Shown: positions 34,881-54,489 of the stretch, one piece after another
How positions within the stretch are numbered: position 1 is the stretch's first letter
Layout: each line of letters begins with the position of its first letter
Source: Sporolactobacillus kofuensis
GTDB lineage: Bacteria > Bacillota > Bacilli > Bacillales > Sporolactobacillaceae
Direction of reading: 5' to 3'
Assembly: GCF_024125425.1 (NCBI RefSeq)
Contig: NZ_JAMXWN010000005.1
Span: 1 to 64,000, forward strand
Length of the DNA stretch: 64,000 nt
The notes under the pieces: generated by a model
Databases searched by the model: none
The model's input: only the letters and a program-made list of their open reading frames with translations
Told to the model about the DNA's origin: nothing
Program-made: the position numbers and the translations under genes

Positions 34881-36058
34881 CAGCAGTCAAAGAGATTGAC
34901 CATGCACACCGCAGCCATGCGCTGCTTGGTGCAAGTGGCGCGCATAAGTGGCTGAACTGTACACCAAGCGCACGACTGGAAGAGCAGTTCCCAGATACGA
35001 CTAGCGAGTATGCAAAGGAAGGTACGCTGGCGCATGAGATCGCCGAACTCAAGCTGCGGAAGTATTTCATCGAGCCAATGAGTAGCCGCACCTATAACAC
35101 ACGTATGAACAAGTTCAAGCGCGACGAGCACTACGATGACGAAATGGACAAGCACACGGACACGTACCTTGAGTACCTGAAGGAGCTGTCCATGAGCCGA
35201 CCGAACGCACCGTTCGTCACGATCGAACAGCGGATGGACTATAGCGATTATGCACCTGGCGGATTCGGCACAGCCGACTGCATCATGATCGAGGGCGACA
35301 CACTTTTCCTTAACGATTTTAAGTATGGCAAGGGCGTTCCAGTATCAGCAGAAAACAATCCGCAAATGATGTTATACGCGCTGGGTGCTCTGAAGAAGTA
35401 CGGCATCTTGTACCCGATTGAGCAGGTGCATTTAGCCATTATCCAACCGAGATTAGACAACATCAGCGAATGGGTTTTTCGGCGGGAAGATCTTGTGATC
35501 TGGGGTAAGAATTTAGTTAAACCGAAAGCAGCATTGGCAGATGCGGGAGAGGGTGAGTTTGTACCTGGCGATCACTGCCGGTTCTGCCGGGCAAAAGCAC
35601 AGTGCCGAGCCTATGCCGGACAATTTACAGCACTACAAGACTTTGGTGCGCCGGTTAAAAAGCCCGCGCTCCTGACGGATGAGGAAATCGGCAAGGTGAT
35701 TAACATTGGCCAGCATCTTGATAACTGGATCAAGGCGGTTAAAGAGTACGCACTCAGCCAATGTCTTGCCGGCAACGAGATTCCTGGATGGAAAGCAGTC
35801 GAGGGACGCGGCTCGAGAAACTACGTTGACCAGGATAAAGCCTTTGCCTACCTCACAGAACACGGTATTGATGAAAACATACTCTACGATCGTGTACCAC
35901 TGACCGTTCCAAAGGTTGAGAAGTTGCTTAAGAAAAAGCAATACGATGAGCTGCTTGTTGTACCCGGACTTGTTGAAAAGACGCAAGGCAAGCCAACGCT
36001 TGCACCGGCAAAGGATAAGCGCCAGGCGATTACCTCAGCAACACAGGATTTTAGCTGA
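34877..36058 (+). CDS. DUF2800 protein, Cas4/RecB-like nuclease family (393 aa)
   Basis: PD-(D/E)XK-fold protein common in phage replication modules. The N-terminal SGAHKWLNCTPSARLEEQFPD and AKEGTLAHEIAEL pattern, then the nuclease core GTADCIMIEGDTLFLNDFKYGKG (Asp ... D-x-K) and a cysteine cluster FCRAKAQCRAYA that could hold an Fe-S cluster. It probably processes DNA ends or recombination intermediates with the DUF2815 protein. Confidence 0.88.
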   Translation: MTAVKEIDHAHRSHALLGASGAHKWLNCTPSARLEEQFPDTTSEYAKEGTLAHEIAELKLRKYFIEPMSSRTYNTRMNKFKRDEHYDDEMDKHTDTYLEYLKELSMSRPNAPFVTIEQRMDYSDYAPGGFGTADCIMIEGDTLFLNDFKYGKGVPVSAENNPQMMLYALGALKKYGILYPIEQVHLAIIQPRLDNISEWVFRREDLVIWGKNLVKPKAALADAGEGEFVPGDHCRFCRAKAQCRAYAGQFTALQDFGAPVKKPALLTDEEIGKVINIGQHLDNWIKAVKEYALSQCLAGNEIPGWKAVEGRGSRNYVDQDKAFAYLTEHGIDENILYDRVPLTVPKVEKLLKKKQYDELLVVPGLVEKTQGKPTLAPAKDKRQAITSATQDFS

Positions 36059-36924
36059 TGTATGGCATTTATAGCGCAGTTTCACGCAAATTCATTTTCG
36101 GAATTGCCGAGAAAAGCAAACGCGCTGCCTTCCGTAAACTAAGACAAAAAATAGGCACGGACGCACTTAAGTATCGTTTCGTAGCCATAAAACTAAAGGA
36201 GACTAAATCAATTATGCCAAATTCACAAAACTCTTATGCAACACGTGTGGTTACACCGGAAGAAGTTCGTTTCAGCTATGTAAATCTACTAAAACCAAAA
36301 GCTAGTACGTTCGGCGGCGATCCAAAATTCAGCGCCGTACTGCTTATTCCGAAGGCTCATACACAAACGAAAGCTGCTCTTGACGCCGCGGTTAATGCAG
36401 CCACGCAAAAAGGTAAAGCAGAAAAGTGGGGCAATGTCATTCCGCCACGGCTCCGGCTGCCAATTCACGATGGCGACGGTGTAAAGGAAAGCGACGGACT
36501 ACCATACGGTCCTGAATGCAAAGGACACTGGGTGCTTGCGGTAAGCAGCGGCACAGATTATCCGCCAAAGATTGTTGGTCCGGATCTACAACCAATTATG
36601 GATGCAACTGAAGTTTACAGCGGCATGTTCGGACGTATTGCAGTTAACTTTGCACCATACAACAGCAACGGTAACAAAGGTGTCGGTGCTTATATCTCGA
36701 CTAACGTCATGAAAACTCGTGATGGCGAACCGCTAGGTGCTTCTGCTCCGGATGCAGGTAGTGACTTCGGCGGTGCACCTGCTCAGGCAGCTCCGCAGTA
36801 TCAGCAACCGCCATACGGTCAGCAGGCATATGGCCAGACTGCTCAACCAGCAGCACCTCAGCCATATGGTCAAACACAAGGACAAGGCCAGCGATTTGAT
36901 CCATTAACTGGGCAATTTCTGTGA
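36058..36924 (+). CDS. DUF2815 ssDNA-binding-like protein with an in-frame N-terminal extension (288 aa)
   Basis: The core from ATG 36214 (MPNSQNSYATRVVTPEEVRF...) is a DUF2815 protein, related to T7 gp2.5-like ssDNA-binding proteins, and ends in a Gln/Gly/Tyr-rich tail (YGQQAYGQTAQ). The frame is open back to ATG 36058, which overlaps the previous stop by one base. The extra 52 residues (MYGIYSAVSRKFIFGIAEKS...) resemble a separate small phage protein often found here. AAAGGAG also precedes 36214. Either a fusion is made or both starts are used. Confidence 0.85.
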   Translation: MYGIYSAVSRKFIFGIAEKSKRAAFRKLRQKIGTDALKYRFVAIKLKETKSIMPNSQNSYATRVVTPEEVRFSYVNLLKPKASTFGGDPKFSAVLLIPKAHTQTKAALDAAVNAATQKGKAEKWGNVIPPRLRLPIHDGDGVKESDGLPYGPECKGHWVLAVSSGTDYPPKIVGPDLQPIMDATEVYSGMFGRIAVNFAPYNSNGNKGVGAYISTNVMKTRDGEPLGASAPDAGSDFGGAPAQAAPQYQQPPYGQQAYGQTAQPAAPQPYGQTQGQGQRFDPLTGQFL

Positions 36925-36935: not shown

Positions 36936-39059
36936 ATGAATGAACAACTAAACAGAGGGCATCCAGTTATGCCCTCTTTAAATTTACCTAAAAGTCACTT
37001 AAATATTGACCTTGAAACGTTTTCAAGTGTGGAAATCAGTAAGAGCGGATCGTACAAATACATCCAGTCAGACGACTTTGAAATCCTATTACTCTCTTAC
37101 TCTTTTAATGGTGGTGAGGTCATCACGATTGATCTTTTGCAAGGTGAGACCGTGCCGCAAGAAGTGATCAATGCCTTGGCTGATCCAAACGTCATCAAGC
37201 ATGCATACAACGCAGCATTTGAGTGGTACGCGCTGAACAAGTTTTGGCACAGTCCGATTGAACAGTGGCAAGACACCATGATACACGGACTGTACTGCGG
37301 CTTTACGAGCGGGCTTGATATTACCGCTAAAGTGCTAGGGCTGCCGCAAGATAAACAGAAAATGACCGTTGGGCGTAACCTCATTAAAATCTTTTGTACA
37401 CCGACGACACCCAACAAGCGAAATGGCAATCGCACGCGAACACTTCCGCACCATGAGCCTGAGAAGTGGCAGCTGTTCAAGGACTATAACAACCAAGACG
37501 TTGCAGTGGAAATGGAGATCGAGAAACGGCTCGGGCGTTTCCCGGTACCTGATGATGTTTGGCAGCAATGGCGACTCGATATGCAGACCAATGCCCATGG
37601 CATACAGCTAGACGAGGAACTTATTAACGGTGCGCTTTACATCGACCAGTTATCAACGTCCCAGCTTAAAGATGAAGCAAAGGCATTAACCGGTCTCGAT
37701 AACCCGAACAGTGCCGCGCAGCTGACCAAGTGGCTAGCGGAAAAGGGTGTAGAAGTTGAGAACCTTCAAAAAGACACAGTCGCTGAACTCGTTAAAACAA
37801 CTACCGGTGAAGTGAAAAAGGTGCTAGAGATCCGGCAGCAACTTTCCAAAACAAGCATTAAGAAATACAAAGCTATGGACGCAGCAATCTGCGCTGATGG
37901 ACGCGTGAGAGGACTTCTGCAGTTCTACGGCGCCAATCGTACCGGACGATGGGCAGGACGGCTTGTCCAGGTTCAGAACCTCAGCAAGAACCATATGAGC
38001 ACCTTGGACTTGGCACGTGACTTGGTGAAGAACAAGAAAGCTGATTTACTATCTTTCACCTATGGGAACACCTCAGATGTACTCAGCCAGCTTGTACGGA
38101 CGGCTTTTGTTCCGGCACCTGGGCATAAGATCGTCGTTGCCGATTTCTCAGCGATTGAAGCCCGCGTTATTGCGTGGCTCTCCGGAGAACAGTGGCGGTT
38201 AGATGTGTTCAACACACATGGCAAAATTTATGAAGCGTCTGCGTCCCAAATGTTCGGCATCCCGATCGATCAGATCAAAAAAGGGTCTTCACTGAGGCAA
38301 CAGGGCAAAGTTGCAGAACTCGCCCTTGGCTATCAAGGCAGTGTTGGTGCAATGAAGCGCATGGACTTCGGAGGGAAGATCAGACCAGATGATATGAGCG
38401 ATGAAGCAGTTAGAGTATTCGCCAACGAAAATGGAGACTTTCTATCCGAGGACGCAGGAGAAGATCAGTATCAACTTGCTAGAGACGCCATGATCGACGC
38501 CAACTATCTCAGCATAGTGCGGAAGTGGCGGGCAGCAAGCAAGCACATCGTCAACATGTGGTACGCCTTTGAAAATGCGGCGCTATCTGTCATGAACGAT
38601 GGACGACCAGCTGGAACACACGGCTTAATCTTCGCTCGTGAGAGCGATATTGTGAACGGTCTTGACTTCCTGACCATTCAGCTGCCAAGCAAGCGCAAGC
38701 TCTACTACGTTAAGCCGTTCATCGCGCAGAACCAGTTTGAAAAAGATGCCCTTTACTATTACGGACTCGATCAGGAAAAACACAAGTGGGTGAAACAAAG
38801 CACCTACGGTGGCAAACTTGTGGAAAACGTCGTACAGGCAATCGCTCGTGACTGCCTAGCAGTCACGCTGAACCGACTAGCCTCAGCAGGCTATCAAACC
38901 GTTATGACCATACACGATGAAGTGGTACTGGACGTGCCGGCAGAACGCGCTGACCTTGATCACGTGGTTGATCTGATGAAACAGCCGATCGAGTGGGCAC
39001 CAGGGCTGCCGCTGAATGCAGATGGATTCGTGAACGACTACTACAAAAAGGATGATTGA
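36936..39059 (+). CDS. Phage DNA polymerase, family A (707 aa)
   Basis: Replicative polymerase of the phage. A 3'-5' exonuclease domain starts at LNIDLETFSS (DxE), and the polymerase domain has motif A VVADFSAIEARVIAWLSGE, motif B-like RQQGKVAELALGYQG and motif C IHDEVVLDVP. GAGGTG precedes the ATG. It is followed by DUF3310 and a clamp-like gene. Confidence 0.95.
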   Translation: MNEQLNRGHPVMPSLNLPKSHLNIDLETFSSVEISKSGSYKYIQSDDFEILLLSYSFNGGEVITIDLLQGETVPQEVINALADPNVIKHAYNAAFEWYALNKFWHSPIEQWQDTMIHGLYCGFTSGLDITAKVLGLPQDKQKMTVGRNLIKIFCTPTTPNKRNGNRTRTLPHHEPEKWQLFKDYNNQDVAVEMEIEKRLGRFPVPDDVWQQWRLDMQTNAHGIQLDEELINGALYIDQLSTSQLKDEAKALTGLDNPNSAAQLTKWLAEKGVEVENLQKDTVAELVKTTTGEVKKVLEIRQQLSKTSIKKYKAMDAAICADGRVRGLLQFYGANRTGRWAGRLVQVQNLSKNHMSTLDLARDLVKNKKADLLSFTYGNTSDVLSQLVRTAFVPAPGHKIVVADFSAIEARVIAWLSGEQWRLDVFNTHGKIYEASASQMFGIPIDQIKKGSSLRQQGKVAELALGYQGSVGAMKRMDFGGKIRPDDMSDEAVRVFANENGDFLSEDAGEDQYQLARDAMIDANYLSIVRKWRAASKHIVNMWYAFENAALSVMNDGRPAGTHGLIFARESDIVNGLDFLTIQLPSKRKLYYVKPFIAQNQFEKDALYYYGLDQEKHKWVKQSTYGGKLVENVVQAIARDCLAVTLNRLASAGYQTVMTIHDEVVLDVPAERADLDHVVDLMKQPIEWAPGLPLNADGFVNDYYKKDD

Positions 39060-41025: not shown

Positions 41026-41631
41026 ATGGACAAGCACAAACAAATACAGATTATCAACAAACTACTTGATCAGTGTGGTGATTGCCCACTACGGTACCGG
41101 CAAGATGGGCATCCAGATAAGGTACATGGGCATTGCGCACTTTATCATGAGATGCGTAAAGTTGGTAAGCCATTGTGGGCGGAAAAACATCGAGATAAAT
41201 ACGTCAAGCTCGTTATAAGTTCGGACGAGTATATGGAGCTACGCAATATAGGTTTCAACGATGAAGAAATCGCTTTTGAAAAAGGCGTGTCCACGTCCAC
41301 GATCAGGCGATGGAAACAGAAAAATGGTATACGAGTAGGTCGGTCAAAATACAAAAGCAAAATTGACAAAATAGACTATGAAGAATTGGTTAAAGAAGGT
41401 TTGCGACCATCACAGATACAAAAACGATTAGGTGTATCGCGTGGACAACTTGAGCTGTTTCGACATGCGAACGGTTATAAATTGGATGGACTTAGAAAAC
41501 CTTTGTCAAGCGATAAAGAGATCCTACAAGCGATCATCGATAAAAAGTCTAATTGGTGGATACAGAAGTATCTACATGCAGGAGCAAAGCGTGTAAATCG
41601 GATAGCGAGGGAACACGGTATTGCACGGTAG
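41026..41631 (+). CDS. Zinc-finger/HTH phage protein, paralogue (201 aa)
   Basis: N-terminal finger CGDCPLRY...HGHCALYHEMRKVG is homologous to the preceding gene. Two HTH-like units follow (NDEEIAFEKGVSTSTIRRWKQK and RPSQIQKRLGVSRGQLELFR) and a shorter third near the end. Starts six bases after the previous stop. Likely DNA binding. Confidence 0.7.
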   Translation: MDKHKQIQIINKLLDQCGDCPLRYRQDGHPDKVHGHCALYHEMRKVGKPLWAEKHRDKYVKLVISSDEYMELRNIGFNDEEIAFEKGVSTSTIRRWKQKNGIRVGRSKYKSKIDKIDYEELVKEGLRPSQIQKRLGVSRGQLELFRHANGYKLDGLRKPLSSDKEILQAIIDKKSNWWIQKYLHAGAKRVNRIAREHGIAR

Positions 41632-42122: not shown

Positions 42123-44570
42123 ATGGCTGTAGTTAACGATCGACAACTCAATATCTCGACCGCTGGAACCCGAACAGCAAAGCTATGGCAACAGCAGACG
42201 ATCTACTGGTCAGAGCTTGCTGAACGACTACGGACAGCAGCGCGAGGAAAGGAGACACTGGAAGATTACCTACGCTTGCCAAAGCGTCAGCAGGACGATC
42301 TGAAGGACGTGGGGGGCTTTGTCGGTGGATCACTTGAAGGTGGGCACCGGAAGGCGTCAGCAGTTACCGGGCGTGACCTGATCACCTTAGACCTCGACAA
42401 CATTCCTGCCGGTGGAACGGATGATGTGCTAAAACGGTTGAACAGCTTCAACTGTGCTTATGTCGTGTACAGTACACGCAAACATGAGCCAGGTAAACCG
42501 CGTCTGCGCTGCCTGTTTCCGCTGGATCGTACGGCAACTGCAGACGAGTACGAGCCAATCGCACGGAAACTCGGATCTATCATTGGCATGGCTTTTATGG
42601 ATCCGACGACGTTCGAAGCAAGTCGGCTAATGTACTGGCCATCATGCTGCGCAAATAGTCAATATGTGTACGAGTTCTCGGACAATCCTTTCTTATCGGT
42701 AGATGGGCTACTGAGCATGTACGACGACTGGCGCGATGTGGATACCTGGCCGGTTGTGCCAGGCACAGAGAATAAGCATGTGCGTCTGGCAGCAAAGCAG
42801 GGTAACCCACTTGAAAAGCATGGCATCGTTGGTGCGTTTTGCCGGCAGTACGATATCTACCAGGCGATTGATAAGTTCCTGCCTGGTGTGTATGAAGAAG
42901 TGGAAGGAAAAGCCGATCGACTGACCTTTATTGAAGGATCAACGGTTGGTGGTGCGATCGTGTACGAGGATGGCAAGTTCTTGTACAGCCATCATGCGAC
43001 GGATCCGGTAAGTGGTCGTCTCGTCAATAGTTTTGACCTGGTGCGCACGCACAAATTCGGGGATGAGGACGACGATGCAGAGCCAGGAACACCGGTCAAT
43101 CGTCTACCCAGCTACAGTCGGATGAGTGCATTTGCACTTGAGGATGATGCTGTAGCCGGCGAATTGTCGCAGAAGCGATACGAACAGGCAGTTCAGGACT
43201 TTGGGCCTCAGGAACAGCAAGAGCCAGGGCAAGAAAAGGTTCAATCAAAGCCGGATACCAGTTTTATCCGAAAGCTAAAGCTGCATCCATCAACCGGTCA
43301 GCCGATGAAAACGATCGAGAACATATTAATCGTTCTTGAGGGTGACCCTGCACTAACCGGACGGATCAGGAAGGACACGTTCGCCGAGAGCATTGTAGGT
43401 GTTGCACCGATGCCATGGGCGCCACGCGACCAAGAGAACGAGCCCTTTCTATGGACAGAAGACGACGATAGTGGACTCGCACTCTATCTTGAAAAACTCT
43501 TAAACTTCCAATCTGCCGACAAGATCAAACATGCACTCAGTCAGTGCTCGGCAAAGAACCGATTTAATCCGGTAGCTGACTTCTTGAATAGTCTCACCTG
43601 GGACGGCAAGAAGCGCCTTGATGATCTATTCATCGATTATCTCGGTGCAGCAGACACGCCCTATGTGCGAGCCGTGACACGCAAATCATTCGTGGCTGCC
43701 GTTGCCCGTGCAATGAAGCCTGGCGTTAAGTACGACACAATGCCAGTCCTTACCGGCACGCAGGGATTGGGCAAAACGACACTGATTCAAAAGCTGGGTA
43801 AAGACTGGTTCACGAACAGTGTGGAATCGTTTGAGGGCAAAGACGCTGCAGAACTACTGCAAGGTGTCTGGATTGTCGAGATTGGCGAAATGAGTGCTTA
43901 TAAGAAGTCTGACCTGGATACGATTAAAGGGTTTCTCAGCCGCACAGAGGACCAGTATCGGGCAGCTTATGCGCGGAAAACGGAGAAGCACCCGAGACGC
44001 TGCGTGTTTTTTGGTACATCAAATCGGAGCGACTATTTAAGAGATCCAACAGGTGGCCGACGATTTCTTCCGATTGATGTTGGCGTGCAGCGTCCGACTA
44101 AAAGTGTTTTTGATGATCTCGATAGTGAAGTGGATCAGTTATGGGCTGAAGCCGTGATGCATTGGCGGCTGGGCGAGAGCCTGTTTCTCACGGGTGAACT
44201 GGAACAGGAGGCAAAGCGGCAGCAGGAGGAACACTCTGAAAGTGACCCGTGGGAAGCCGCTATTAATGAATTTGTCGAGCGAAAGGTACCCGCAGACTGG
44301 GACAAAAAAGATATTAATGCCCGCATGATGTACTGGAATAGTGAGTTCGGCAAGCCGGAGCAACCCGTTGAAACGATTCAGAGAGACCGCGTATGCGCCC
44401 AAGAAATATGGGTGGAGTGCTTAGGTAACCGTGATTTACGGTTCATGAAACGCCGTGATGTTGCCGTGATTAACGACATTCTTGGGCGAATTAAGGGCTG
44501 GGAAAAGGTCAAAAATTCATATCGATTTGGGCCCTATGGGAGGGTTAAAGGTGGATTTATTCGGGGATAA
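42123..44570 (+). CDS. VirE-type phage primase-helicase (815 aa)
   Basis: Likely starts phage replication. The N-terminal region looks like an AEP primase (LITLDLDNIPAGGTDDV with an Asp-x-Asp pair, and PRLRCLFPLDR). The C-terminal VirE/DUF3874-type helicase domain has P-loop GTQGLGKTTLIQK, Walker B-like WIVEIGEM and the FFGTSNRSDYLRDPTGGRRFLPI sensor region. An iteron-rich gap follows directly. Confidence 0.9.
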   Translation: MAVVNDRQLNISTAGTRTAKLWQQQTIYWSELAERLRTAARGKETLEDYLRLPKRQQDDLKDVGGFVGGSLEGGHRKASAVTGRDLITLDLDNIPAGGTDDVLKRLNSFNCAYVVYSTRKHEPGKPRLRCLFPLDRTATADEYEPIARKLGSIIGMAFMDPTTFEASRLMYWPSCCANSQYVYEFSDNPFLSVDGLLSMYDDWRDVDTWPVVPGTENKHVRLAAKQGNPLEKHGIVGAFCRQYDIYQAIDKFLPGVYEEVEGKADRLTFIEGSTVGGAIVYEDGKFLYSHHATDPVSGRLVNSFDLVRTHKFGDEDDDAEPGTPVNRLPSYSRMSAFALEDDAVAGELSQKRYEQAVQDFGPQEQQEPGQEKVQSKPDTSFIRKLKLHPSTGQPMKTIENILIVLEGDPALTGRIRKDTFAESIVGVAPMPWAPRDQENEPFLWTEDDDSGLALYLEKLLNFQSADKIKHALSQCSAKNRFNPVADFLNSLTWDGKKRLDDLFIDYLGAADTPYVRAVTRKSFVAAVARAMKPGVKYDTMPVLTGTQGLGKTTLIQKLGKDWFTNSVESFEGKDAAELLQGVWIVEIGEMSAYKKSDLDTIKGFLSRTEDQYRAAYARKTEKHPRRCVFFGTSNRSDYLRDPTGGRRFLPIDVGVQRPTKSVFDDLDSEVDQLWAEAVMHWRLGESLFLTGELEQEAKRQQEEHSESDPWEAAINEFVERKVPADWDKKDINARMMYWNSEFGKPEQPVETIQRDRVCAQEIWVECLGNRDLRFMKRRDVAVINDILGRIKGWEKVKNSYRFGPYGRVKGGFIRG

Positions 44571-44584
44571 TTGGAAAATAATGG

Positions 44585-44849
44585 GTCAACCTTCTTGTCA
44601 ACCTTCTACCCATTTTGTCAACCTTGTAAAATTTGGAAATACAACCTTGTCAACCTTCTAAACTATGAAGGTTGACACAAAGGTTGACAGAAAAATCCCT
44701 TTATATCAGTAAATATTAACTAATGTATACCTTGTCAACCTTAAATACTATATAGATAGATAAATAGGTAAATAGAGGATTTAGAGAGTATATATACCCT
44801 CAAATTACCTAATTTAGAATCATATACGCGTATAGGGTAAAAGGTTGAC
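44585..44849. repeat. Iteron array and AT-rich tract, candidate phage replication origin
   Basis: Eight perfect copies of a 9-mer lie in 265 bases. GTCAACCTT occurs at 44585, 44597, 44617, 44649 and 44734. AAGGTTGAC (inverted) occurs at 44668, 44680 and 44841. A partial copy, ACAACCTT, is at 44641. Between the clusters (about 44700-44830) the DNA is strongly AT-rich. There is no gene on either strand with a ribosome site. Position straight after the primase-helicase suggests an origin; binding of a regulator is the alternative. Confidence 0.7.
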
Positions 44850-44879
44850 AAGCCCACTTTTGAAAGTGAGGTTTGTAGA

Positions 44880-45176
44880 ATGCGAGAGCGAGAGATTGAA
44901 ACGTACCTCCGGGAACAAGTGAAGAAAGCTGGAGGGAAAGCATACAAGTTTGAATCGCCAGGAAATGATGGAGTGCCAGATCGATTGGTGGTTTTCCCTG
45001 GCAATCGAATTTATTTCGTCGAATTGAAACGACCAGGTGGAAAGCCAAGGCCGTTGCAAGTTAAGAAGATTAGTGAACTACAAGGATTTAACTGCCGGGT
45101 ACTTGTTATCGATTCAAAAGAACAGGTTGATACTTTTGTTTGGGAAGAATTATGTGTTTCAAGGCATTTAAAATGA
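44880..45176 (+). CDS. VRR-NUC domain nuclease (98 aa)
   Basis: Stand-alone virus-type replication-repair nuclease: REREIETYLREQVKKAGG, catalytic GNDGVPDRLVVFPGNRIYFVELKRPGG (PD...ExK) and RPLQVKKISELQ. Usual companion of the SNF2 helicase that follows. Confidence 0.93.
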   Translation: MREREIETYLREQVKKAGGKAYKFESPGNDGVPDRLVVFPGNRIYFVELKRPGGKPRPLQVKKISELQGFNCRVLVIDSKEQVDTFVWEELCVSRHLK

Positions 45177-45201: not shown

Positions 45202-46584
45202 ATGATGTTCAAACCGCACGACTATCAGAAGTTTGCAATCGAAAAAGTGATTGATCGACCGGCTGTGGGGTTGTTTTTGGACATGGGACTTGGCAAAACG
45301 GCCATCACGTTAACCGCAATCAATGATCTGAAATATAACCGATTTGCAATCAACAAAGTACTGGTTGTGGCACCTAAGAAAGTGGCACAAGCAACCTGGC
45401 AGAAAGAAGCGCAGCAGTGGGACCATCTGAAATTGATTCGTTTTTCAACTTGCCTAGGATCGCAGACGAAACGAGTCAGAGCATTGAATACTCCTGCAGA
45501 TATTTATGTGATCAATCGAGAAAACATTCCATGGTTGGTTGAATATTACCGAAACAATTGGCCGTTTGACATGGTGGTTTTGGATGAATCATCAAGCTTT
45601 AAGAACCATCAGGCGAAACGGTTTAAGGCCATGAGAATGGTTCGGCCGCACATCAAACGGATTGTTGAATTGACGGGTACACCAGCGCCGAACGGATTGA
45701 TGGACCTGTGGGCACAGGTTTATCTCCTAGATCAAGGGGAGCGCTTAGGCAAACGCATCACAGGATTCCGTGAACGGTACTTTGAACCGGATCAACGAGG
45801 GCGTGACAAGGTTTACAGCTACAAGCCTAAAGATGGCGGAGATAATGCAGTGCAAAAGTTGATTGGCGATATCTGTGTGAGCATGAAAGCCGATGATTAT
45901 CTGCAACTTCCTGATCTGATTTCGGATCAGATTCCTGTGATCCTGGATCCAAAAGCAAAACGAGCGTATGAGAAGCTTGAGCAGGATATGATCTTGAAGA
46001 TAGACGAGTCAACGATCGATGCCGGGTCTGCAGCCGTACTTGGCAATAAGCTGCTACAGCTTTGCGATGGTGCTGTGTATGACGGTGAACGGAACATTGT
46101 TGAAATCCATAACTGTAAGATCGACGCATTTACAGAGTTGATCGAAGGGCTTGCTAGAAAACCTGCACTTGTATTTTATAACTATCAGCATGATAAGGCA
46201 CGTATCTTGAAAGCATTGAAGGATTCAATGCTTCGTGTACGTGAGTTGAAGACCGAACAAGATCAGCAGGATTGGAATGACCACAAGATTGATATCCTCT
46301 TGGCGCATCCTGCAAGCGCAGCATACGGATTGAACCTGCAATACGGCGGCAATCACGTGATTTGGTTTAGCTTGCCTTGGGGGTTGGAACTCTTCCAGCA
46401 GGCAAATAAGCGTCTGCATCGGCAAGGGCAGACCCAGAAGGTGATCATGCACATGCTGACGGTTTCGGGAGGAATGGATGAGGACGTGGTTGCACGGCTA
46501 ACGGATAAAGCAAGCACGCAGGATGAGCTGATCGAATCTTTGAAAGCGAGGATTAAGCGTGTGAAACAGGAGGTAACAGGATGA
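45202..46584 (+). CDS. SNF2-family DEAD/DEAH helicase (460 aa)
   Basis: Superfamily 2 ATPase. Walker A LDMGLGKTAIT, DEAH-type box VVLDESSSFKN, motif III LTGTPAPNGLMDLWAQ, and C-terminal motifs PASAAYGLNLQ and ANKRLHRQGQTQKV. Common in siphovirus early regions with VRR-NUC. Overlaps the next gene by four bases. Confidence 0.93.
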   Translation: MMFKPHDYQKFAIEKVIDRPAVGLFLDMGLGKTAITLTAINDLKYNRFAINKVLVVAPKKVAQATWQKEAQQWDHLKLIRFSTCLGSQTKRVRALNTPADIYVINRENIPWLVEYYRNNWPFDMVVLDESSSFKNHQAKRFKAMRMVRPHIKRIVELTGTPAPNGLMDLWAQVYLLDQGERLGKRITGFRERYFEPDQRGRDKVYSYKPKDGGDNAVQKLIGDICVSMKADDYLQLPDLISDQIPVILDPKAKRAYEKLEQDMILKIDESTIDAGSAAVLGNKLLQLCDGAVYDGERNIVEIHNCKIDAFTELIEGLARKPALVFYNYQHDKARILKALKDSMLRVRELKTEQDQQDWNDHKIDILLAHPASAAYGLNLQYGGNHVIWFSLPWGLELFQQANKRLHRQGQTQKVIMHMLTVSGGMDEDVVARLTDKASTQDELIESLKARIKRVKQEVTG

Positions 46585-46997
46585 CGGAAACGAAATTAAA
46601 ACCCGCAGTGTTTAAATATATTGAGTCAGAACTTTATGATTATCCGGAGACAAAGAAAGAAATAAAGCGACTTCGAGAACAAATTATATACGGTTCGTCA
46701 TCCGAAGATAATATCGGTGGTGGTCGACCAAGCGAACCAGGACGGCCAACAGAACGAATTGCGTCAAGGTTAGTCAATAATCGTAAACTTCGAAACATGG
46801 AAGAGGTCATTGACGCAATCGAATCAGCGTATCAGCAGATACCTAGCGAATATCAAAAAATAATTCGAATGAAATATTGGGATCGCCAGTCGATGCAGTG
46901 GAAAGAGGTTGCTGACAAGTGTTTTGTTCATCCAAATACGGTAACAAAATACAGACGTCGATTTGTTTATCTTGTTGCTGACAAGATAGGCGTGTGA
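46581..46997 (+). CDS. ArpU/RinA-type phage late transcription regulator (138 aa)
   Basis: Sigma-70 region 4-like HTH at the C-terminus (MQWKEVADKCFVHPNTVTKYRRRF) and N-terminal helices with YPETKKEIKRLREQI. Proteins of this kind sit at the end of the early module and turn on packaging and structural genes. A promoter and short terminator follow. Confidence 0.8.
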   Translation: MTETKLKPAVFKYIESELYDYPETKKEIKRLREQIIYGSSSEDNIGGGRPSEPGRPTERIASRLVNNRKLRNMEEVIDAIESAYQQIPSEYQKIIRMKYWDRQSMQWKEVADKCFVHPNTVTKYRRRFVYLVADKIGV

Positions 46998-47577: not shown

Positions 47578-47655
47578 CGCGATCCCACAGGGAACGCGGC
47601 TCCCAGGATTCTCTCGCAAAAACTCCCTTTTTGAAATTTTGAGATTAGGAGGTGA
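47578..47655. other. Candidate cos region
   Basis: The gap between HNH and TerS contains GGGA-acgcggc-TCCC and other GC-rich symmetry, in the usual place of cos in HK97-like phages. The exact nick sites cannot be read. Confidence 0.3.
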
Positions 47656-47660
47656 TCCGG

Positions 47661-48113
47661 ATGCCAGGACGCCAAAAACAACCAACAGATTTGCTCTTGG
47701 TCAAAGGCAAAAAGCATTTGACGAAGGCTGAGATTGAAAAACGAAAATCAGAAGAAGTTAAGGCGCCATCGGATAAGATCCGGGCGCCTTCTTACTTGAC
47801 CAATGACTTAAAAAAAGAATTTCGTAAGCTTGCAAAAGAGCTTGTTGAAATAAATATAATGAGTAACTTGGATGTTGATGCACTGGCACGCTTTGTTATG
47901 TCTCGCAAATTGTACAACGACCTCATGACTAAGCTTTTGAATAAGCCTGACTTGATGCTTGATAAAGATTTTGCGTCTGCACAGGATAAGCTGTTTAAAC
48001 AATGTCGTGCTTCCGCTACCGATCTTGGCTTAACCATCACATCGCGCTGCAAACTCGTTGTACCGAAAAAAGAGGAAGACAAACCTAAAAGCAAATGGGA
48101 TAAATTTGCATGA
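47661..48113 (+). CDS. terS: Terminase small subunit, P27 family (150 aa)
   Basis: Recognises phage DNA for packaging. N-terminal MPGRQKQPTDLLLVKGKKHLTK basic segment and helical region APSYLTNDLKKEFRKLAKEL, typical of P27 proteins. ATG 47661 follows a perfect GGAGGTGATCC. Overlaps TerL by four bases. Confidence 0.9.
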   Translation: MPGRQKQPTDLLLVKGKKHLTKAEIEKRKSEEVKAPSDKIRAPSYLTNDLKKEFRKLAKELVEINIMSNLDVDALARFVMSRKLYNDLMTKLLNKPDLMLDKDFASAQDKLFKQCRASATDLGLTITSRCKLVVPKKEEDKPKSKWDKFA

Positions 48114-49843
48114 TCGATCGAGTTACCCAGTATGCACAAGACGTGGTGGATGGTAAATATACAAAAGGCAGGCTTGAAATTCTTGCATGCAAGCGGCATT
48201 TGAATGATTTAAAACGACAAGATACAGACGAATTTCCGTATCACTGGGACGCGGACCAAGCGAGCCGAATGATTGATTTTTCTGAGACACTGACGCTTGC
48301 CGAAGGTGAAGAACCGCAACCGATGAAGCTTTATGCCTTTCAGGATTTTGTATTTGGTTCCTGGAACGGCTGGCTGAGGTCAGGAACGCCATACCGGCGT
48401 TTTCGAACAAGTTATATGCAGGTGGCAAGGCAAAATGGTAAATCAGTTGGTAATGCGGTTCCGTCAATGTACTATGGAAATTTTGCTGGCTATCAGTATC
48501 CACAGATTTACGTGGTAGCAACCAAGGAGCAGCAAGCAAAGATTGTTTTAAAAGAGTGCTATAAATTTATCAATGCTGATCGTGATTTGTCCGGGACGAA
48601 AACGAAGCCCGGACTGTTTACGATAAAAGATTACAAGTCGGAAATAGAATGCAATCTAACGAACGGAAACATCAAGGCACTCGGTCGTGATACCGAAAGC
48701 ATTGACGGTTTCCGTCCATTTTTTGGTTCTGTTGATGAGTACCATAAACACAAGACGAACCAAATGTATAAGCTGCTTTCTGACGGTACGAAAAAGCTGA
48801 AGCAATCGCTGATTTCGGTCATTACAACAGCCGGATTTGACATCAATTCACCCTGCAAAGAACTTTACGACTACTGTGTGAAGGTGCTTGAAGGGCGGAT
48901 CCCAGACGAAACGCAATTTGTTTTTATCGCTCAGTTGGATCCGGATGACGATATCTGGGATGAAAAGAACTGGCCTAAAGCTAACCCACTTTGGACAGAC
49001 GAAACACTGGAAAACTTACGGAATGATGCAGTCAAAGCAAAGGAAATGCAAGGCACAGAACTTCGTAATTTTTTGACGAAGGACCTCAACATGTGGGTTC
49101 AAATGGCGGATGAAGACTACATCAATGCTGAAAATTGGAAAGCGTGTGCATCAGATCTGACGCTAGAGGATTTTCGTGGCCAAGAATGCGTCGTTGGTTT
49201 GGACTTATCGAGTGGTGGCGACTTAACATCACTTGCACTTGAATTTCAGATACCTGGCGGATATATGCCGAAAGTATTTTTACATCAGCATTCATTTATC
49301 CCTAAAATGCGTTTGAATGAGCATATTTTGACTGATAAAGCACCGTATGATATTTGGCATAGGCAAGGATTAATTACAGCCACTGAGACGCTTGCGGGCG
49401 TTAAAACGGATTACAAGTATATTATCCAATATCTTAAAGAACTGCGAGATCAATACAACTTAAAATTTAAAGCAATCGCCTACGACCCACACAATGCAGA
49501 TACATTCTTGGCTGACCTCGAAGAGTTTGGATGTGATTGCATCGAAATTGTACAGAGCGCTAAAAGCTTGAACACTCCAACGGAAGATTTCAAGCTATCA
49601 GTTGATGCAAAAAGCGTGCTCTACAACAAAGATGATGGGCTTTTGACATGGTGTGCGTTAAACGCAAAGCTAACATACAACAGCTTCAAAGAAATGAAGA
49701 TCGATAAAGAGCACCGGACGGAGCGTATTGACCCAATCGATGCTGCTATTGATGCACATAAAATTGTGTTAATGAACAGGGAAAATGAAATTGATATCAA
49801 TGAATCTGCAGACGACTATCTGAAGATGATGGGATGGGATTAG
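48110..49843 (+). CDS. terL: Terminase large subunit (577 aa)
   Basis: ATP-driven packaging motor with nuclease. ATPase domain starts FRTSYMQVARQNGKSVGNAV (Walker A-like RQNGKS), with FGSVDEYHKH as Walker B, then the RNase H-like nuclease domain starting VVGLDLSSGGDLTSLAL and later FKAIAYDPHNADTFL and ERIDPIDAAIDAHK. Full length. Confidence 0.96.
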   Translation: MIDRVTQYAQDVVDGKYTKGRLEILACKRHLNDLKRQDTDEFPYHWDADQASRMIDFSETLTLAEGEEPQPMKLYAFQDFVFGSWNGWLRSGTPYRRFRTSYMQVARQNGKSVGNAVPSMYYGNFAGYQYPQIYVVATKEQQAKIVLKECYKFINADRDLSGTKTKPGLFTIKDYKSEIECNLTNGNIKALGRDTESIDGFRPFFGSVDEYHKHKTNQMYKLLSDGTKKLKQSLISVITTAGFDINSPCKELYDYCVKVLEGRIPDETQFVFIAQLDPDDDIWDEKNWPKANPLWTDETLENLRNDAVKAKEMQGTELRNFLTKDLNMWVQMADEDYINAENWKACASDLTLEDFRGQECVVGLDLSSGGDLTSLALEFQIPGGYMPKVFLHQHSFIPKMRLNEHILTDKAPYDIWHRQGLITATETLAGVKTDYKYIIQYLKELRDQYNLKFKAIAYDPHNADTFLADLEEFGCDCIEIVQSAKSLNTPTEDFKLSVDAKSVLYNKDDGLLTWCALNAKLTYNSFKEMKIDKEHRTERIDPIDAAIDAHKIVLMNRENEIDINESADDYLKMMGWD

Positions 49844-49884
49844 ATGGTTAGCCATAAATTATGCCCGGTGGAGGTGATCCAGAT

Positions 49885-51309
49885 TTGAATATATTTCAAC
49901 GATTTTTTAGCAGCGTACGATCACGGGTACGGCGTACCATTGTCAATCTCATCTCACCTACTGGAACGGTTGGACTACAAGACGAAGAATTGCTTGAATG
50001 GCTAGGCATCTCACAAACATCAAAAAGTGTTTTGGGCGAAACAACTTATTTCACCTGTTTGAAAATGTTGTCTGAAACACTCGGGAAAATGCCGTTAAAG
50101 TATTACCAGGACACCGAAAATGGCATTGAAAAAGCGGCATCAAACCGAGTTCATCAGCTTCTAAGTCGCCGACCTAATCCATACATGACACCATCAACGT
50201 TTTGGGCAGCGGTTGAGCAAAACCGAAACCATTTTGGCAATGCTTACGTGTGGATCAGGAGAAAATTGACGCTTTATCAGTTCGGCGGCAATTACGAAGT
50301 GCAAGATTTTTGGATTATGCCTAGTGATTCGGTGACCATTTATTACGATGATGCAGGATTATTTGGCGAACCTGATGCACTTTGGTATCAATATTCGGAC
50401 AAGTATACTGGAAAACGATACTTTTTCCGTAGCCGTGATGTGTTGCATTTTAAAACATCATACAGTTTTGACGGTGTTTCCGGTGCGGCTGTTAAAGATA
50501 TTTTGAAAGCTACGGTAGAGGGCGGACTTGAGAGTCAAAACTTTATGAACAACCTTTATAAGAGTGGTCTTACAGCAAAAGCAGTACTTGAATATACCGG
50601 TGACCTTGACAAGAGTAAGCAGGCAAAGCTTAAAGCTGGCATGGAAGAATTTGCAAACGGATCTGCTAACGCTGGCAAGATTATACCGGTACCACTCGGA
50701 ATGAAATTGACGCCACTCAATATTAAACTCACGGATAGCCAATTCTTTGAATTGAAAAAATTTGGAGCACTGCAAATTGCGGCGGCGTTCGGCATTAAGC
50801 CAAATCAGATCAATGACTATGAAAAGTCGTCTTACTCAAACTCGGAAATGCAGCAGCTTAGTTTTTATGTAGATACCGAACTGTACATCCTGAAACAGTA
50901 CGAAGAAGAATTAAATTTTAAACTCTTAACCGATCAAGAAATGACGGCCGGCTATTTCTTAAAGTTTAACGAGAAAGTCATCCTTCGTACAGATAGCAAG
51001 TCGCAAATGGAATCCTTAACAAAGGCTGTTGACTCAGGGATTTACAGCAGAAATGAAGCGCGTGAGTTGCTGAATCTGCCACGTAAAGATGGCGGGGATG
51101 TCTTGGCCGCAAATGGAAACTTAATCCCTGTAGTAATGGCAGGGGAACAGTATAAAAAGGCTGACAACGAGGATAAAGCAGTGCTGACTGTTAATGAACG
51201 ACGTGCTGCCATTGGATTGCCACCGATTGAAGGCGGAGACGCTATTTACATGCCGGCTAGTGAAATTCCAAGTATTGATGTGAATGATTCGGGCGGTGAT
51301 GGCATGTGA
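49885..51309 (+). CDS. Portal protein, HK97 family (474 aa)
   Basis: Dodecameric entry vertex of the capsid. Family blocks YFTCLKMLSETLGKMPLKYY, HQLLSRRPNPYMTPSTFWAA and QIAAAFGIKPNQINDYEKSSYSNSEMQQLSF are present. TTG 49885 lies eight bases after GGAGGTGATCC; the ATG at 49861 precedes that ribosome site. Overlaps the next gene by four bases. Confidence 0.95.
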   Translation: MNIFQRFFSSVRSRVRRTIVNLISPTGTVGLQDEELLEWLGISQTSKSVLGETTYFTCLKMLSETLGKMPLKYYQDTENGIEKAASNRVHQLLSRRPNPYMTPSTFWAAVEQNRNHFGNAYVWIRRKLTLYQFGGNYEVQDFWIMPSDSVTIYYDDAGLFGEPDALWYQYSDKYTGKRYFFRSRDVLHFKTSYSFDGVSGAAVKDILKATVEGGLESQNFMNNLYKSGLTAKAVLEYTGDLDKSKQAKLKAGMEEFANGSANAGKIIPVPLGMKLTPLNIKLTDSQFFELKKFGALQIAAAFGIKPNQINDYEKSSYSNSEMQQLSFYVDTELYILKQYEEELNFKLLTDQEMTAGYFLKFNEKVILRTDSKSQMESLTKAVDSGIYSRNEARELLNLPRKDGGDVLAANGNLIPVVMAGEQYKKADNEDKAVLTVNERRAAIGLPPIEGGDAIYMPASEIPSIDVNDSGGDGM

Positions 51310-52061
51310 AACCCTTATTTGGCAGTATTAGTCAGACGATTGGAAAGACAATCGCTCGTAACTCACCAAAGTATAGCAAAATTGTTGAGCCATTCGGAGA
51401 TAAAGGCACGTTTGCATTATTCGTGGAGAAAAAGCCAGCAAATTCACATGTTGTTAACGTGGTTGATCCGGTCCTTTTCAATGCTTTTTTGTTCGCACAA
51501 AGCTATTCTGGTAGTGACTTTTCAGCACTTAAAAAAATGGATTGGGTCGGATCGCAAGAAGCTTTTGACGCTGCTATGAGCATTTCGGACACAGAAACAG
51601 GTGTTCAAGGCTTTTACCGGTTCATTTATCTGAAAAAATTTGGCATGAAGATGCTTGGAGCAGACCAACCAACTTTCGACATTTTTAGTACTGGTGTGGA
51701 TGTTAAAAATTCACTGTTTTCTTTGCCCATGATGAAGGCATTACTTAAAAAGGTGACCTTTACTAACGATGATCCGCTGAGCATGATTCCGTCAGATGGC
51801 TTTATGATCCTTGTTCCACCACCTGATCAGATTGATACAGTCAAATCACGATTAAAGGGCCTATCCGGCTCTTTTTTCTTTGCAGGAAAAGCTGCTGATG
51901 GTGATGCAGTTATTTCTGATGCTGAAGCACTTCCGGACTTGAATGTACATGCTCAGAAAGTGGCATCGATCATGATGAACACGTATTCATTTATCACGAA
52001 TTATGACTCACGGCTAGAACCTATTGATCCGGAAGTGCTTAAGTCTGGGATGAACATGTGA
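51306..52061 (+). CDS. Putative degenerate D12-class methyltransferase-like protein (251 aa)
   Basis: Between portal and protease. The segment IVEPFGDKGTFALFVEKKP...VNVVDPVLFNAF recalls the FxGxG-type opening and following Asp of Dam-like (D12) adenine methyltransferases, but the glycine loop is altered and no DPPY motif is seen (VPPPD is the nearest). It is probably an inactive structural derivative, or simply unrelated. GTG start overlapping the portal gene. Confidence 0.45.
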   Translation: MKPLFGSISQTIGKTIARNSPKYSKIVEPFGDKGTFALFVEKKPANSHVVNVVDPVLFNAFLFAQSYSGSDFSALKKMDWVGSQEAFDAAMSISDTETGVQGFYRFIYLKKFGMKMLGADQPTFDIFSTGVDVKNSLFSLPMMKALLKKVTFTNDDPLSMIPSDGFMILVPPPDQIDTVKSRLKGLSGSFFFAGKAADGDAVISDAEALPDLNVHAQKVASIMMNTYSFITNYDSRLEPIDPEVLKSGMNM

Positions 52062-52076
52062 GGGAGGTGATTACGG

Positions 52077-53288
52077 ATGAAAATAAACGTTATCTGGGGT
52101 GCTCCGGAAAGTGGAAAAACGACTTACGTCAATGAGCATAAAGCGGAAAATAATTTAATATTCGATTTTGATTTGCTCATGCGTGACTTATCCGGACTTT
52201 CGCTTTATGAACGTAACGAGTACATCATCTCGTATATTACCGACTTTCGTCAAACCATCGTCAATCGCATGGATCGAGAACGCAACATTGACAGTGCTTG
52301 GATGATTATCTCTTATCCAGCTGATCCGCTCAAAATGCAGCTTGAAGATTTAGGCGCAGAATTTATTCTGATGAAAGCGACTAGGCAAGAGTGCTTGGAT
52401 CGCCTCGCACTCGATGAAGCTCGCAAGGACAAAAGTGAATGGGCACAGGTTATCAATGACTGGTTTGATCGTTATGAAGATGAGTACGGTAACGATCAAA
52501 ATAGTGAAAATTTCACCGAAAGGAGGGTTGTAAATATGTCAAAACGATTTTGGAACTTCGTTAAGAACGAAGATACAGGTAGCGCAGAGTTACGCATTGA
52601 TGGCGACATTATTTCAGACGATGATGCTTGGTTGTATGAATGGTTTGACATTAAGGCTACAGCGCCAAATGCGTTTCGAGAAGCATTGAAAGACTATGAT
52701 GGACAACCGATTGATGTCTGGATTGATAGTTACGGTGGCGATGTCTTTGCAGCAGCTGGAATCTACAATGCGCTTAAGGCTCATAACGGAAAAGTAACAA
52801 CGAAAATCGATGGAAAAGCGATGTCTGCTGCATCTGTCATTGCAATGGCTGGAGACGAGGTGCTTATGTCGCCACTTGCAGTGATGATGATCCATAATCC
52901 ACTTAGCGCCGCTCAAGGGTACGCGAGCGACCTGAGAAAACAGGCGGAGGTGCTTGACACTGTTAAAGAGACGATTATTAATGCCTATCAAGCCAAGACA
53001 CATAAATCTCGTTCGAAGTTATCCGCCTTAATGGATGACGAAACGTACATGGATAGCAAGTTGGCTATTAAAAATGGTTTTGCTGATGGCGAACTTAATC
53101 AGGACAAGCAGCCTGCAGCTGTCAATATGGCTTTTAATCGTTACGCAATTGTTAACAGTGCTAAGTTATCGATGCGCCGGCTGGTTGATTTTGAAAAAAT
53201 GCGCGATGTGCAAAATGCAGCCGATCATCAGCAGCAAGACCGCGAGCAGGAAAAACAAGCTTTGCTCGATGAATTAGACCTAATTTAA
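52077..53288 (+). CDS. P-loop NTPase fused to ClpP-like prohead protease (403 aa)
   Basis: Residues 1-153 form a kinase-like P-loop NTPase (VIWGAPESGKTTYVN; LIFDFDLLMRD; KATRQECLDRL). Residues 154-403 form a ClpP-type (S14) prohead protease with Ser in GKAMSAASVIAMAGD and His in MMIHNPLS. ATG 52536, in the same frame, has AAAGGAGGG upstream and would make the protease alone (250 aa). In many phages these are two genes; here no stop separates them. Confidence 0.9.
   Translation: MKINVIWGAPESGKTTYVNEHKAENNLIFDFDLLMRDLSGLSLYERNEYIISYITDFRQTIVNRMDRERNIDSAWMIISYPADPLKMQLEDLGAEFILMKATRQECLDRLALDEARKDKSEWAQVINDWFDRYEDEYGNDQNSENFTERRVVNMSKRFWNFVKNEDTGSAELRIDGDIISDDDAWLYEWFDIKATAPNAFREALKDYDGQPIDVWIDSYGGDVFAAAGIYNALKAHNGKVTTKIDGKAMSAASVIAMAGDEVLMSPLAVMMIHNPLSAAQGYASDLRKQAEVLDTVKETIINAYQAKTHKSRSKLSALMDDETYMDSKLAIKNGFADGELNQDKQPAAVNMAFNRYAIVNSAKLSMRRLVDFEKMRDVQNAADHQQQDREQEKQALLDELDLI
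52526..52538 (+). promoter_or_regulatory. Internal ribosome site for the free protease
   Basis: AAAGGAGGG (52519-52527 region) before ATG 52536, inside the longer frame. It is one of the strongest ribosome sites in the late operon. Confidence 0.7.
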
Positions 53289-53301
53289 GGAGATGGACAA
53301 T

Positions 53302-54489
53302 TTGAACAAGAAATTGCTTGAAATGCTGAATGCAATTAATGCAAAAAAACAAGAAGTGAAAGATTTAATTGCTGCGGATAAACTCGATGAAGCAAAGGCA
53401 GCAAAAAATGAACTGGTTAACCTGCAGAACAAGTTTGATTTGGCCAAAGATCTTTATGATGAAGAAGAAAAGACCGCTACTAATAATGCGCAGCCGGCTA
53501 CACCAGTTGTTGAAGACAAAGCGAAACAGCATGAAGCGTTCGTTAATATCATCAAAGCTGGTCTTTCTAAACAAGCAGTAAACGAAGAAGATTTGAAAAT
53601 CTACAACGCAATGACTGAAGCTGATCCTGTCGCAGGGATATCTGAAGGTGGAGTTACAGTACCTCAAGATATTCGTACACAGATTATGGAGATGAGACGA
53701 AATCTTGATGCCCTTGAACCGCTTGTACATGTGGAACCAGTAACAACGCTAACCGGTTCGCGCGTGATCGAAGTTACTGCCGATCAAGTACCGTTTGACA
53801 ATGTCGATGAAGCAGCTCAATTTCCAGATGTTGCAACACCAGAGTTTACAACCATTGAATATAAAGTAGCAAAAAAAGGCGGAATCTTGAAATCATCTCG
53901 TGAATTATTACAAGATACTGCAGAAAATATTCTCGCGTATCTAGGAAACTGGATTCAGAAAAAAGCTCGTGTTACACGAAACTTTATGATTCTGTCCCAA
54001 TTAAACACAATCACTGCTGGAAAAGAAGTCACAATTGCTGATTTTGATGACTTCAAAGATGTATTCAACGTCATCCTCGACCCAGCGATTGCTATCTCGT
54101 CTGTTGTTTTGACAAACCAGGACGGTTTCAACTGGATGGACAAGCAGAAAGACAGTGAAGGTAATTACATTCTGCAGAAAGATCCGACACAAGCGACACG
54201 CAAGCTGCTTTTCGGTATATATCCAGTACATGTTGTATCTAACAAAGTGCTTCCTTCTGTCGCTGTTGGTGATCCGGTTACTAGCCATACTGTACCGGTC
54301 TACATGGGCGATTTTAAAGAAGCGATCACGATTTTTGACCGCGAAACCTTGTCAATCGAAATTTCAACAGAAGCTGGAGACCTGTGGGGTAAAGACCAGA
54401 CAGGCATTAAGGTCCGTGAACGTCTTGATATTAAAACTGTTGACGGTGAAGCAGCTGTTAAAGGTCAGATCAGCATTCCAGTAGCATAA
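53302..54489 (+). CDS. Major capsid protein, HK97 fold (395 aa)
   Basis: N-terminal delta/scaffold coiled coil (residues about 1-75, LEMLNAINAKKQEVKDLI), likely removed by the protease, then the HK97 core with GGVTVPQDIRTQIMEMRRNLDAL and ILKSSRELLQDTAENILAYLG. TTG 53302 stands nine bases after GGAG; the ATG at 53293 abuts it, so TTG is preferred. Confidence 0.93.
   Translation: MNKKLLEMLNAINAKKQEVKDLIAADKLDEAKAAKNELVNLQNKFDLAKDLYDEEEKTATNNAQPATPVVEDKAKQHEAFVNIIKAGLSKQAVNEEDLKIYNAMTEADPVAGISEGGVTVPQDIRTQIMEMRRNLDALEPLVHVEPVTTLTGSRVIEVTADQVPFDNVDEAAQFPDVATPEFTTIEYKVAKKGGILKSSRELLQDTAENILAYLGNWIQKKARVTRNFMILSQLNTITAGKEVTIADFDDFKDVFNVILDPAIAISSVVLTNQDGFNWMDKQKDSEGNYILQKDPTQATRKLLFGIYPVHVVSNKVLPSVAVGDPVTSHTVPVYMGDFKEAITIFDRETLSIEISTEAGDLWGKDQTGIKVRERLDIKTVDGEAAVKGQISIPVA

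What the first reader, a model, noticed from the sequence alone, without database searches (positions are those of the whole stretch)
44585..44849. Iteron-like array (8 x GTCAACCTT, both orientations) as phage origin
Eight perfect 9-mers in 265 bases flank an AT-rich tract in a noncoding gap directly after the primase-helicase. Chance occurrence of this density is negligible.
Basis: partly seen in the sequence, partly recalled or inferred. Interest (0 to 1): 0.75.

Follow-up and report, generated by a model that had tools for sequence, protein, structure and literature searches.

The report
Phage replication origin with coevolving iterons
The repeats look like the start site of DNA copying for a prophage, read by the tail end of the neighbouring primase-helicase; a similar layout recurs in many related phages, where the repeat letters and the tail of the protein tend to change together.

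Summary
In detail: eight exact GTCAACCTT copies lie at 44585-44849, in the 309-bp gap between a VapE-type primase-helicase gene and a VRR-NUC gene; a ninth, stray copy is at 61212. The phage-origin reading is supported. Of 125 distinct VapE-to-VRR-NUC gaps from related (pro)phages, 123 carry a short repeat array stronger than in any of 20 shuffles of the same gap. The layout is largely shared: forward block, inverted block, about 45 bp, forward pair, about 100 bp of AT-rich DNA, inverted copy. The repeat letters vary between phages, and residues 799 and 807 in the C-terminal winged-helix-like domain of VapE rank first of all its columns for the two variable bases. A rule read from the first loci fits base 1 in 17 of 19 and base 2 in 15 of 19 later rows, not all independent. 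Two phages with 95% identical VapE differ together in protein tail and repeats. The nearest solved protein is PriRep1 with dsDNA, 7pds. This is a PICI/SaPI-style rep-ori unit in a phage with its own head and tail genes. Nothing was tested at the bench.

The parts
42123..44570 (+). VapE-type primase-helicase (815 aa), proposed origin-binding initiator
   Evidence: Pfam VapE-like_dom 1.8e-82; PHROG 256 DNA helicase; AF2 pLDDT 90.9; closest PDB chain 7pds PriRep1
44220..44567 (+). C-terminal winged-helix-like domain (residues 700-815), proposed iteron-binding domain
   Evidence: AF2 of the domain pLDDT 88.9, pTM 0.80; Foldseek to 7pds TMq 0.74-0.78, other PDB hits E 0.28 or worse
44517..44519 (+). 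codon of residue 799 (Ser), top column for iteron base N1
44541..44543 (+). codon of residue 807 (Arg), top column for iteron base N2
44585..44593 (+). iteron A1, exact
44597..44605 (+). iteron A2, exact
44617..44625 (+). iteron A3, exact
44640..44648 (+). iteron A4, degenerate (TACAACCTT), 9 bp before A5
   Evidence: read; the copy at +70
44649..44657 (+). iteron A5, exact
44668..44676 (-). iteron B1, exact, inverted
44680..44688 (-). iteron B2, exact, inverted
44725..44733 (+). iteron C1, degenerate (GTATACCTT), 9 bp before C2
   Evidence: read; in relatives 61 of 63 detected C pairs are spaced 8-9 bp
44734..44742 (+). iteron C2, exact
44743..44840 (.). AT-rich spacer, 98 bp, 73% AT, proposed unwinding element
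44841..44849 (-). iteron D, exact, inverted, beyond the AT-rich spacer
44880..45176 (+). VRR-NUC nuclease, usual downstream neighbour
45202..46584 (+). SNF2-type helicase, usual downstream neighbour
36936..39059 (+). A-family DNA polymerase of the same replication module
36058..36924 (+). Enc34-type ssDNA-binding protein of the same module

Best explanation
The array is the replication origin of a temperate phage, integrated here in radC. Inferred mechanism: the C-terminal winged-helix-like domain of the VapE primase-helicase binds the 9-10 bp iterons. Copies bound in opposite orientation on the two sides of the AT-rich spacer (C pair and D) place two helicase rings facing each other, the spacer melts, the helicases load and the primase domain starts synthesis, extended by the phage A-family polymerase with its SSB. 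Shown here by computation: the array, its conserved place and largely shared layout in relatives, and its co-variation with the VapE C-terminus. Inferred: binding, melting, ring loading, bidirectional start.
For: The array beats all 20 shuffles in 123 of 125 distinct gaps and all (up to 12) control windows of the same locus in 117 of 125. Iterons flanking the widest spacing point in opposite directions in 98 of 102 loci whose widest spacing is 85-135 bp (37 of 139 loci had another spacing and were not counted; permuted orientations give mean 52.6, maximum 68 in 500), and that spacer is richer in AT than the VapE gene in 102 of 102. Of the 815 VapE positions, 799 ranks first for base N1 and 807 for N2 (23 loci, 30 loci). 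The best VRR-NUC and SNF2 columns reach z 3.8 and 4.0 for N1 against 8.5, and 3.3 and 4.7 for N2 against 5.6. From the list: P799 in 12 of 12 loci with N1=A and 0 of 18 others; K/R/Q807 in 14 of 17 with N2=G and 1 of 13 others (most of these loci are those on which the rule was seen). Later loci: N1 7 of 8 and 10 of 11, N2 6 of 8 and 9 of 11. Natural pair L033/L221. Nearest solved relative PriRep1 was solved with dsDNA.
Against: No replication, binding or marker-frequency data. On well-supported branches only 5 independent pairs test residue 799 (5 of 5 agree, sign test p 0.0625); for 807, 9 pairs, 6-8 agree, 0 disagree, the rest do not differ in the residue. Exceptions: L190 and L234 (V799/R807 with GA iterons) miss both bases; L299, L203, L082, L011 and the fragment L021 miss N2. 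With 30 loci other VapE columns far from the C-terminus also score high (568, 667 and 314 at z 5.8-6.1 for N1; 283 at 5.06 for N2, against 807 at 5.60). The family-wide partial correlation is modest (0.18 for residues 801-815, 0.14 for 761-800, but 0.13 also for 641-680). Two gaps do not beat shuffles (L157, L018), and eight do not beat all control windows. In this window only one iteron lies beyond the AT-rich spacer; at least two on both sides of the widest spacer was seen in 69 of 148 loci, and in 15 of 148 that spacer is not clearly richer in AT than the gene.
Confidence: 0.88

Rival explanations
1. The repeats are operators: VapE or a small phage repressor/activator binds them to control the VRR-NUC/SNF2/late genes, and replication starts elsewhere.
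For: The array sits upstream of an operon, and the iteron of this phage contains TTGACA, the sigma-70 -35 hexamer. Phage proteins resembling HTH proteins or regulators are present (41026-41631, 46581-46997).
Against: No promoter-like site in 44400-45000 (0 found, 1.5 expected in shuffles). Relatives have iterons without TTGACA (AAAGTATACA, AAAGTAGACA). Copies in both orientations (147 of 148 loci with five or more copies) around a long AT-rich spacer would be unusual for an operator. The best co-varying columns are in the helicase.
Confidence: 0.06
2. The array is an origin, but the iteron-binding initiator is another protein (phage HTH protein or host factor), with VapE only the helicase.
For: Many phages use a separate initiator (lambda O; recalled).
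Against: VapE columns 799 and 807 outrank every VRR-NUC and SNF2 column. In L033/L221 protein tail and iterons differ together. The other phage ORFs were not scanned for co-variation, so this is not excluded.
Confidence: 0.05
3. A packaging (cos/pac), partition or recombination site.
For: Repeats with an AT-rich core also occur at such sites (recalled).
Against: The terminase small-subunit gene lies about 3 kb downstream (47652 onward), no partition family was hit by the proteins scanned (11 distinct proteins, not the whole prophage), and repeats also follow vapE in plasmid elements (L215-L217, no shuffle control there).
Confidence: 0.01

Closest known systems
SaPI/PICI rep-ori units (Rep helicase, origin just 3' of rep)
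   Same: Initiator helicase gene followed directly by iterons around an AT-rich region; helicase C-terminal domain reported to recognise the origin (PMC7581432 and PMC6092414, passages read); nearest solved structure is PriRep1 (7pds), which I recall as a SaPI1 protein
   Different: Here in a phage with its own terminase, portal, head and tail genes, polymerase, SSB, VRR-NUC and SNF2 genes; primase and helicase fused in one 815-aa protein (the PICI paper says pri and rep are sometimes fused); [quoted passage not shown]
SCCmec Cch2 and its three-iteron origin
   Same: C-terminal domain binds a repeat region directly downstream of the helicase gene (PMC7581432, passages)
   Different: Cch2 is of the Primase_Cterm/D5_N helicase type with three short repeats, not a VapE-domain protein
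Lambdoid origin (O protein iterons beside an AT-rich region)
   Same: Phage iterons beside AT-rich DNA (recalled)
   Different: Lambda iterons lie inside the O gene, and O recruits the host helicase through P (recalled; the place in gene O also in an abstract seen)
Iteron plasmids of the RepA/RepE kind
   Same: Repeats bound by a winged-helix initiator beside an AT-rich region (recalled)
   Different: Initiator is not itself the helicase; iterons are mostly direct and longer (recalled)

Membership tests
SaPI/PICI-type rep-ori unit | origin lies immediately 3' of the initiator helicase gene | tested here: met
   first iteron 15 bp after the vapE stop; repeat array in the same gap in 123 of 125 distinct gaps
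[quoted passage not shown]
   window: nine copies (seven exact, two degenerate) before but only one after a 98-bp, 73% AT spacer; two or more on both sides of the widest spacer in 69 of 148 relatives
SaPI/PICI-type rep-ori unit | initiator is a helicase homologous to a SaPI Rep | tested here: met
   7pds PriRep1 E 4e-83 by sequence and TMt 0.81-0.86 by fold; that PriRep1 is the SaPI1 Rep is recalled
SaPI/PICI-type rep-ori unit | helicase C-terminal domain binds the iterons | tested here: inconclusive
   co-variation only; no binding assay
SaPI/PICI-type rep-ori unit | rep plus ori drives autonomous replication | not testable with these tools
   reported for SaPIbov1, SaPI1, EfCIV583 and EcCICFT073 in PMC6092414 (passage), not for this phage
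PICI (as a whole element) | phage satellite that relies on a helper for its structural genes | tested here: not met
   terminase small and large subunits, portal, head protease, major head, major tail and tape measure proteins follow at 47652-60418; the element spans about 31.1-73.8 kb of contig C39, splitting radC; 64.0-73.8 kb was not read
Lambdoid origin | iterons inside the initiator gene, host helicase recruited | tested here: not met
   iterons are outside vapE, and the adjacent protein carries its own helicase domain

The most novel reading that the evidence does not exclude
Phages of the VapE clade carry an origin-specificity cassette: residues 799 and 807 in the wing of the initiator's winged-helix domain read the two variable bases of the iteron A-n-G-T-N1-N2-A-C-A (P799 with A, other residues mostly with T; K/R/Q807 with G, L/M/I mostly with T or A), and the 3' end of vapE moves between phages together with its iterons, so that phages sort into replication-specificity groups. 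PICI origins would then be one branch of a wider phage origin type.
Probability: 0.55. Interest if true: 0.72.

Novelty: new member of a known kind. Interest (0 to 1): 0.55.

Why it matters
VapE/VirE-type genes, often filed under virulence, are common in phages (731 of 50,697 phage records give a tblastn match, 324 of them with at least 80% of the query covered), and none of the five named phage stretches I opened lists an origin. A shared layout lets one mark the likely origin of such phages from sequence, and the co-varying residues make DNA recognition by the initiator directly testable. It also bears on the printed statement (PMC6092414, passage) that this origin organisation is found in PICIs and in no other known bacterial replicon.

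Tried and rejected
Operator reading: no promoter-like site, and TTGACA is absent from iterons of many relatives. Structured RNA: one Rfam match far below its gathering score (19.3 against 70 bits), set aside. Two terminator-like hairpins on the minus strand (0.3 expected): one is the inverted pair A5/B1, the other pairs the direct copies A1 and A2; I read both as by-products of the repeats. Spacing classes about 10 bp apart first looked like helical phasing; one search shows that part of it comes from missing a degenerate partner 9 bp away, so I do not claim phasing. Iteron base 3 ranked residue 777 first, but this rests on three loci and no tree control. A code for other iteron forms (AAAGTTACA and others) was not attempted: 26 of 37 new loci and 12 of 20 fall outside the rule.

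Literature: ten searches listed no title or abstract start that reports an iteron origin 3' of vapE in phages; the listings are capped. I read passages of PMC7581432, PMC10061031, PMC8637289, PMC6092414 and PMC5862659 only, and other hits as listings. Two papers that I tried by id, recalled as the SaPI helicase-structure paper and the 2007 SaPI origin paper, are not held.

Full report
Observation. The window holds nine exact GTCAACCTT, eight of them at 44585-44849 in the gap between a VapE-type gene and a VRR-NUC gene; shuffles of the window give 0.62. Close pairs of the 9-mer in one orientation occur nowhere else in the assembly. Two degenerate copies (44640-44648, 44725-44733) complete a regular layout (my reading). 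GC drops to 24-37% over the gap.

Setting. The element is a prophage in radC: a RadC match ends at 31054 and another begins at 73820 of contig C39, where the window is C39:1-64000. Its replication module reads exonuclease (DUF2800), Enc34-type SSB, A-family polymerase, VapE primase-helicase, array, VRR-NUC, SNF2 helicase, and terminase, portal, head and tail genes follow. In 90 aligned VapE proteins D90 and D92 are invariant and H121 at least 90% conserved, in line with an archaeo-eukaryotic primase domain (motif recalled); the VapE ATPase domain and a C-terminal domain follow.

Relatives. with the window gave 153 sequences, 144 of them with a VapE C-terminus. Of these, 5 had no VRR-NUC match, 5 had a gap outside 100-700 bp and repeated identical gaps were counted once, leaving 125 gaps. 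The best 8-mer repeat (one mismatch allowed, both strands) beat all 20 dinucleotide shuffles in 123 of 125 and every control window (same length, up to 12 per locus) in 117 of 125; at VapE identity of 50% or more it was 55 of 55 and 54 of 55. The letters differ: AAGGTTGACA, AAAGTATACA, AAAGTAGACA, AAAGTTTACA, AAAGTTACA, ATGGATACC, GGAACAA and others. Best repeats were also printed, without a shuffle control, for the named phages 3A, Pd_22F, phiFL4A, LWP01 and phiPaco and for plasmid elements, including L215-L217, where VapE stands next to a separate primase gene; L217 is the weakest.

Layout. A later set of 201 loci gave 166 distinct gaps, 148 with at least five copies and 139 with at least six that could be oriented. 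The usual picture is a forward block within about 80 bp of the stop, an inverted block at about 60-140, a forward copy or pair, an AT-rich spacer and an inverted copy or pair; the single patterns vary. The Listeria phage LWP01, whose VapE is 42% identical, repeats order and nearly the positions of the window: 20+ 32+ 51+ 75+ 94- 107- 151+ 273- against 15+ 27+ 47+ 79+ 97- 109- 164+ 270- (the window's degenerate copy at +70 left out here). The copies on the two sides of the widest spacing are opposed in 98 of the 102 loci where that spacing is 85-135 bp; the other 37 of 139 were not counted. Where two copies were detected, the forward pair is spaced 8-9 bp in 61 of 63, and the step from the inverted block to it is 43-48 bp in 50 of 63.

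Recognition. I saw the rule by eye and noted it; the rankings came after. For loci with iterons A-n-G-T-N1-N2-A-C-A, mutual information was computed for every VapE column. Residue 799 led for N1 (z 8.0, next 4.9) and 807 for N2 taken as G or not (z 5.5, next 3.6) with 23 loci. With 30 loci, N2 taken as the base, they led again (8.5, next 6.1; 5.6, next 5.1) and were first and second for the dinucleotide (7.7, 6.7, next 4.9), while VRR-NUC and SNF2 columns reached at most 4.3 and 4.7 in any of the three scans. L014 was given its class (TG) by hand from incomplete copies; L021, a fragment, was left out of the scans. On a tree of residues 1-700, N1 changes at least 10 times and N2 at least 12 times; independent pairs on supported branches agree in 5 of 5 (p 0.0625) and in 6-8 of 9 with none opposed. 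Later loci were scored as P799 to A, otherwise T, and K/R/Q807 to G, otherwise not G., scored by hand on the printed rows: N1 7 of 8 and N2 6 of 8 among 20 new loci (12 lack three copies of this form)., scored by script: N1 10 of 11 and N2 9 of 11 among 37 (26 lack four copies). Some later loci are close to earlier ones (L187 to L186, L197 to L009, L247 to L080), so these are not all independent. L190 and L234 miss both bases in the same way, with V799, R807 and GA, which suggests a second solution. Family-wide, after allowing for residues 1-700, iteron similarity correlates with the two last VapE segments most (0.18 and 0.14), but 641-680 is close (0.13); 0 of 500 permutations reached the value for 741-815 (120 loci).

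Natural pair. L033 and L221 have 95% identical VapE; 16 of 40 differences lie after residue 700, among them S799P and R807K. L221 has TAGAC at all nine proximal sites, where L033 has TTGAC at seven and TAGAC at two, at the same positions, while most of the AT-rich tract, the distal copy and the DNA beyond are nearly identical. Protein tail and repeats differ together, as if swapped as a block; that a swap happened is inferred.

Structure. AlphaFold2 gives pLDDT 90.9 for the whole protein and 88.9 for the C-terminal 116 residues: helices 759-766 and 777-789, then a small sheet whose second and third strands begin at 799 and 807 in the domain model, which I read as helix-turn-helix and wing. Foldseek finds 7pds, PriRep1 with dsDNA, first for both; weak winged-helix hits (vIRF-1, Fox proteins) are not significant. 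Among viral models the significant hits of the domain are a phage VapE and an uncharacterised fragment. phmmer finds 7pds alone at E up to 0.01 (4e-83, residues 388-771). That PriRep1 is the SaPI1 initiator is recalled.

Known context. PMC7581432 (passages) describes SaPI Rep reading an iteron origin directly downstream with its C-terminal domain, and shows binding of repeats by the Cch2 C-terminal domain. PMC6092414 (passages) describes two iteron sets around AT-rich DNA 3' of rep in PICIs, autonomous replication from such units, and says that no other known bacterial replicon shares this. PMC5862659 (passages) predicts VirE-domain ATPases to be helicases of mobile elements. I found no report of this origin in VapE phages in ten capped searches; the library lacks most subscription papers.

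Verdict. A phage replication origin read by the adjacent VapE initiator, of the kind known from SaPIs/PICIs, is well supported by comparison; binding and firing remain untested.

Noticed in passing
30581-31066 and contig C39:73820-74044: radC is split by the prophage: N-terminal part before the integrase, C-terminal part about 42.7 kb on, with a few profile positions (46-52) in both parts, so precise excision might rejoin it.
   Followed up: partly
33001-33042: A 21-bp tandem repeat beside the S24-type repressor gene (32356-32970, -) could be its operators.
   Followed up: no
44769-44816: Imperfect palindrome (27-nt arms, 74%, overlapping) inside the AT-rich spacer between iterons C and D.
   Followed up: no
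L190 and L234: Both pair V799/R807 with GA iterons, against the main rule; may be a second recognition solution.
   Followed up: partly
L215, L216, L217: Plasmid elements with a VapE helicase next to a separate primase gene carry repeats just downstream as well (no shuffle control).
   Followed up: partly
61212-61220: Isolated ninth copy of the 9-mer; chance expectation is 0.62 per window.
   Followed up: yes
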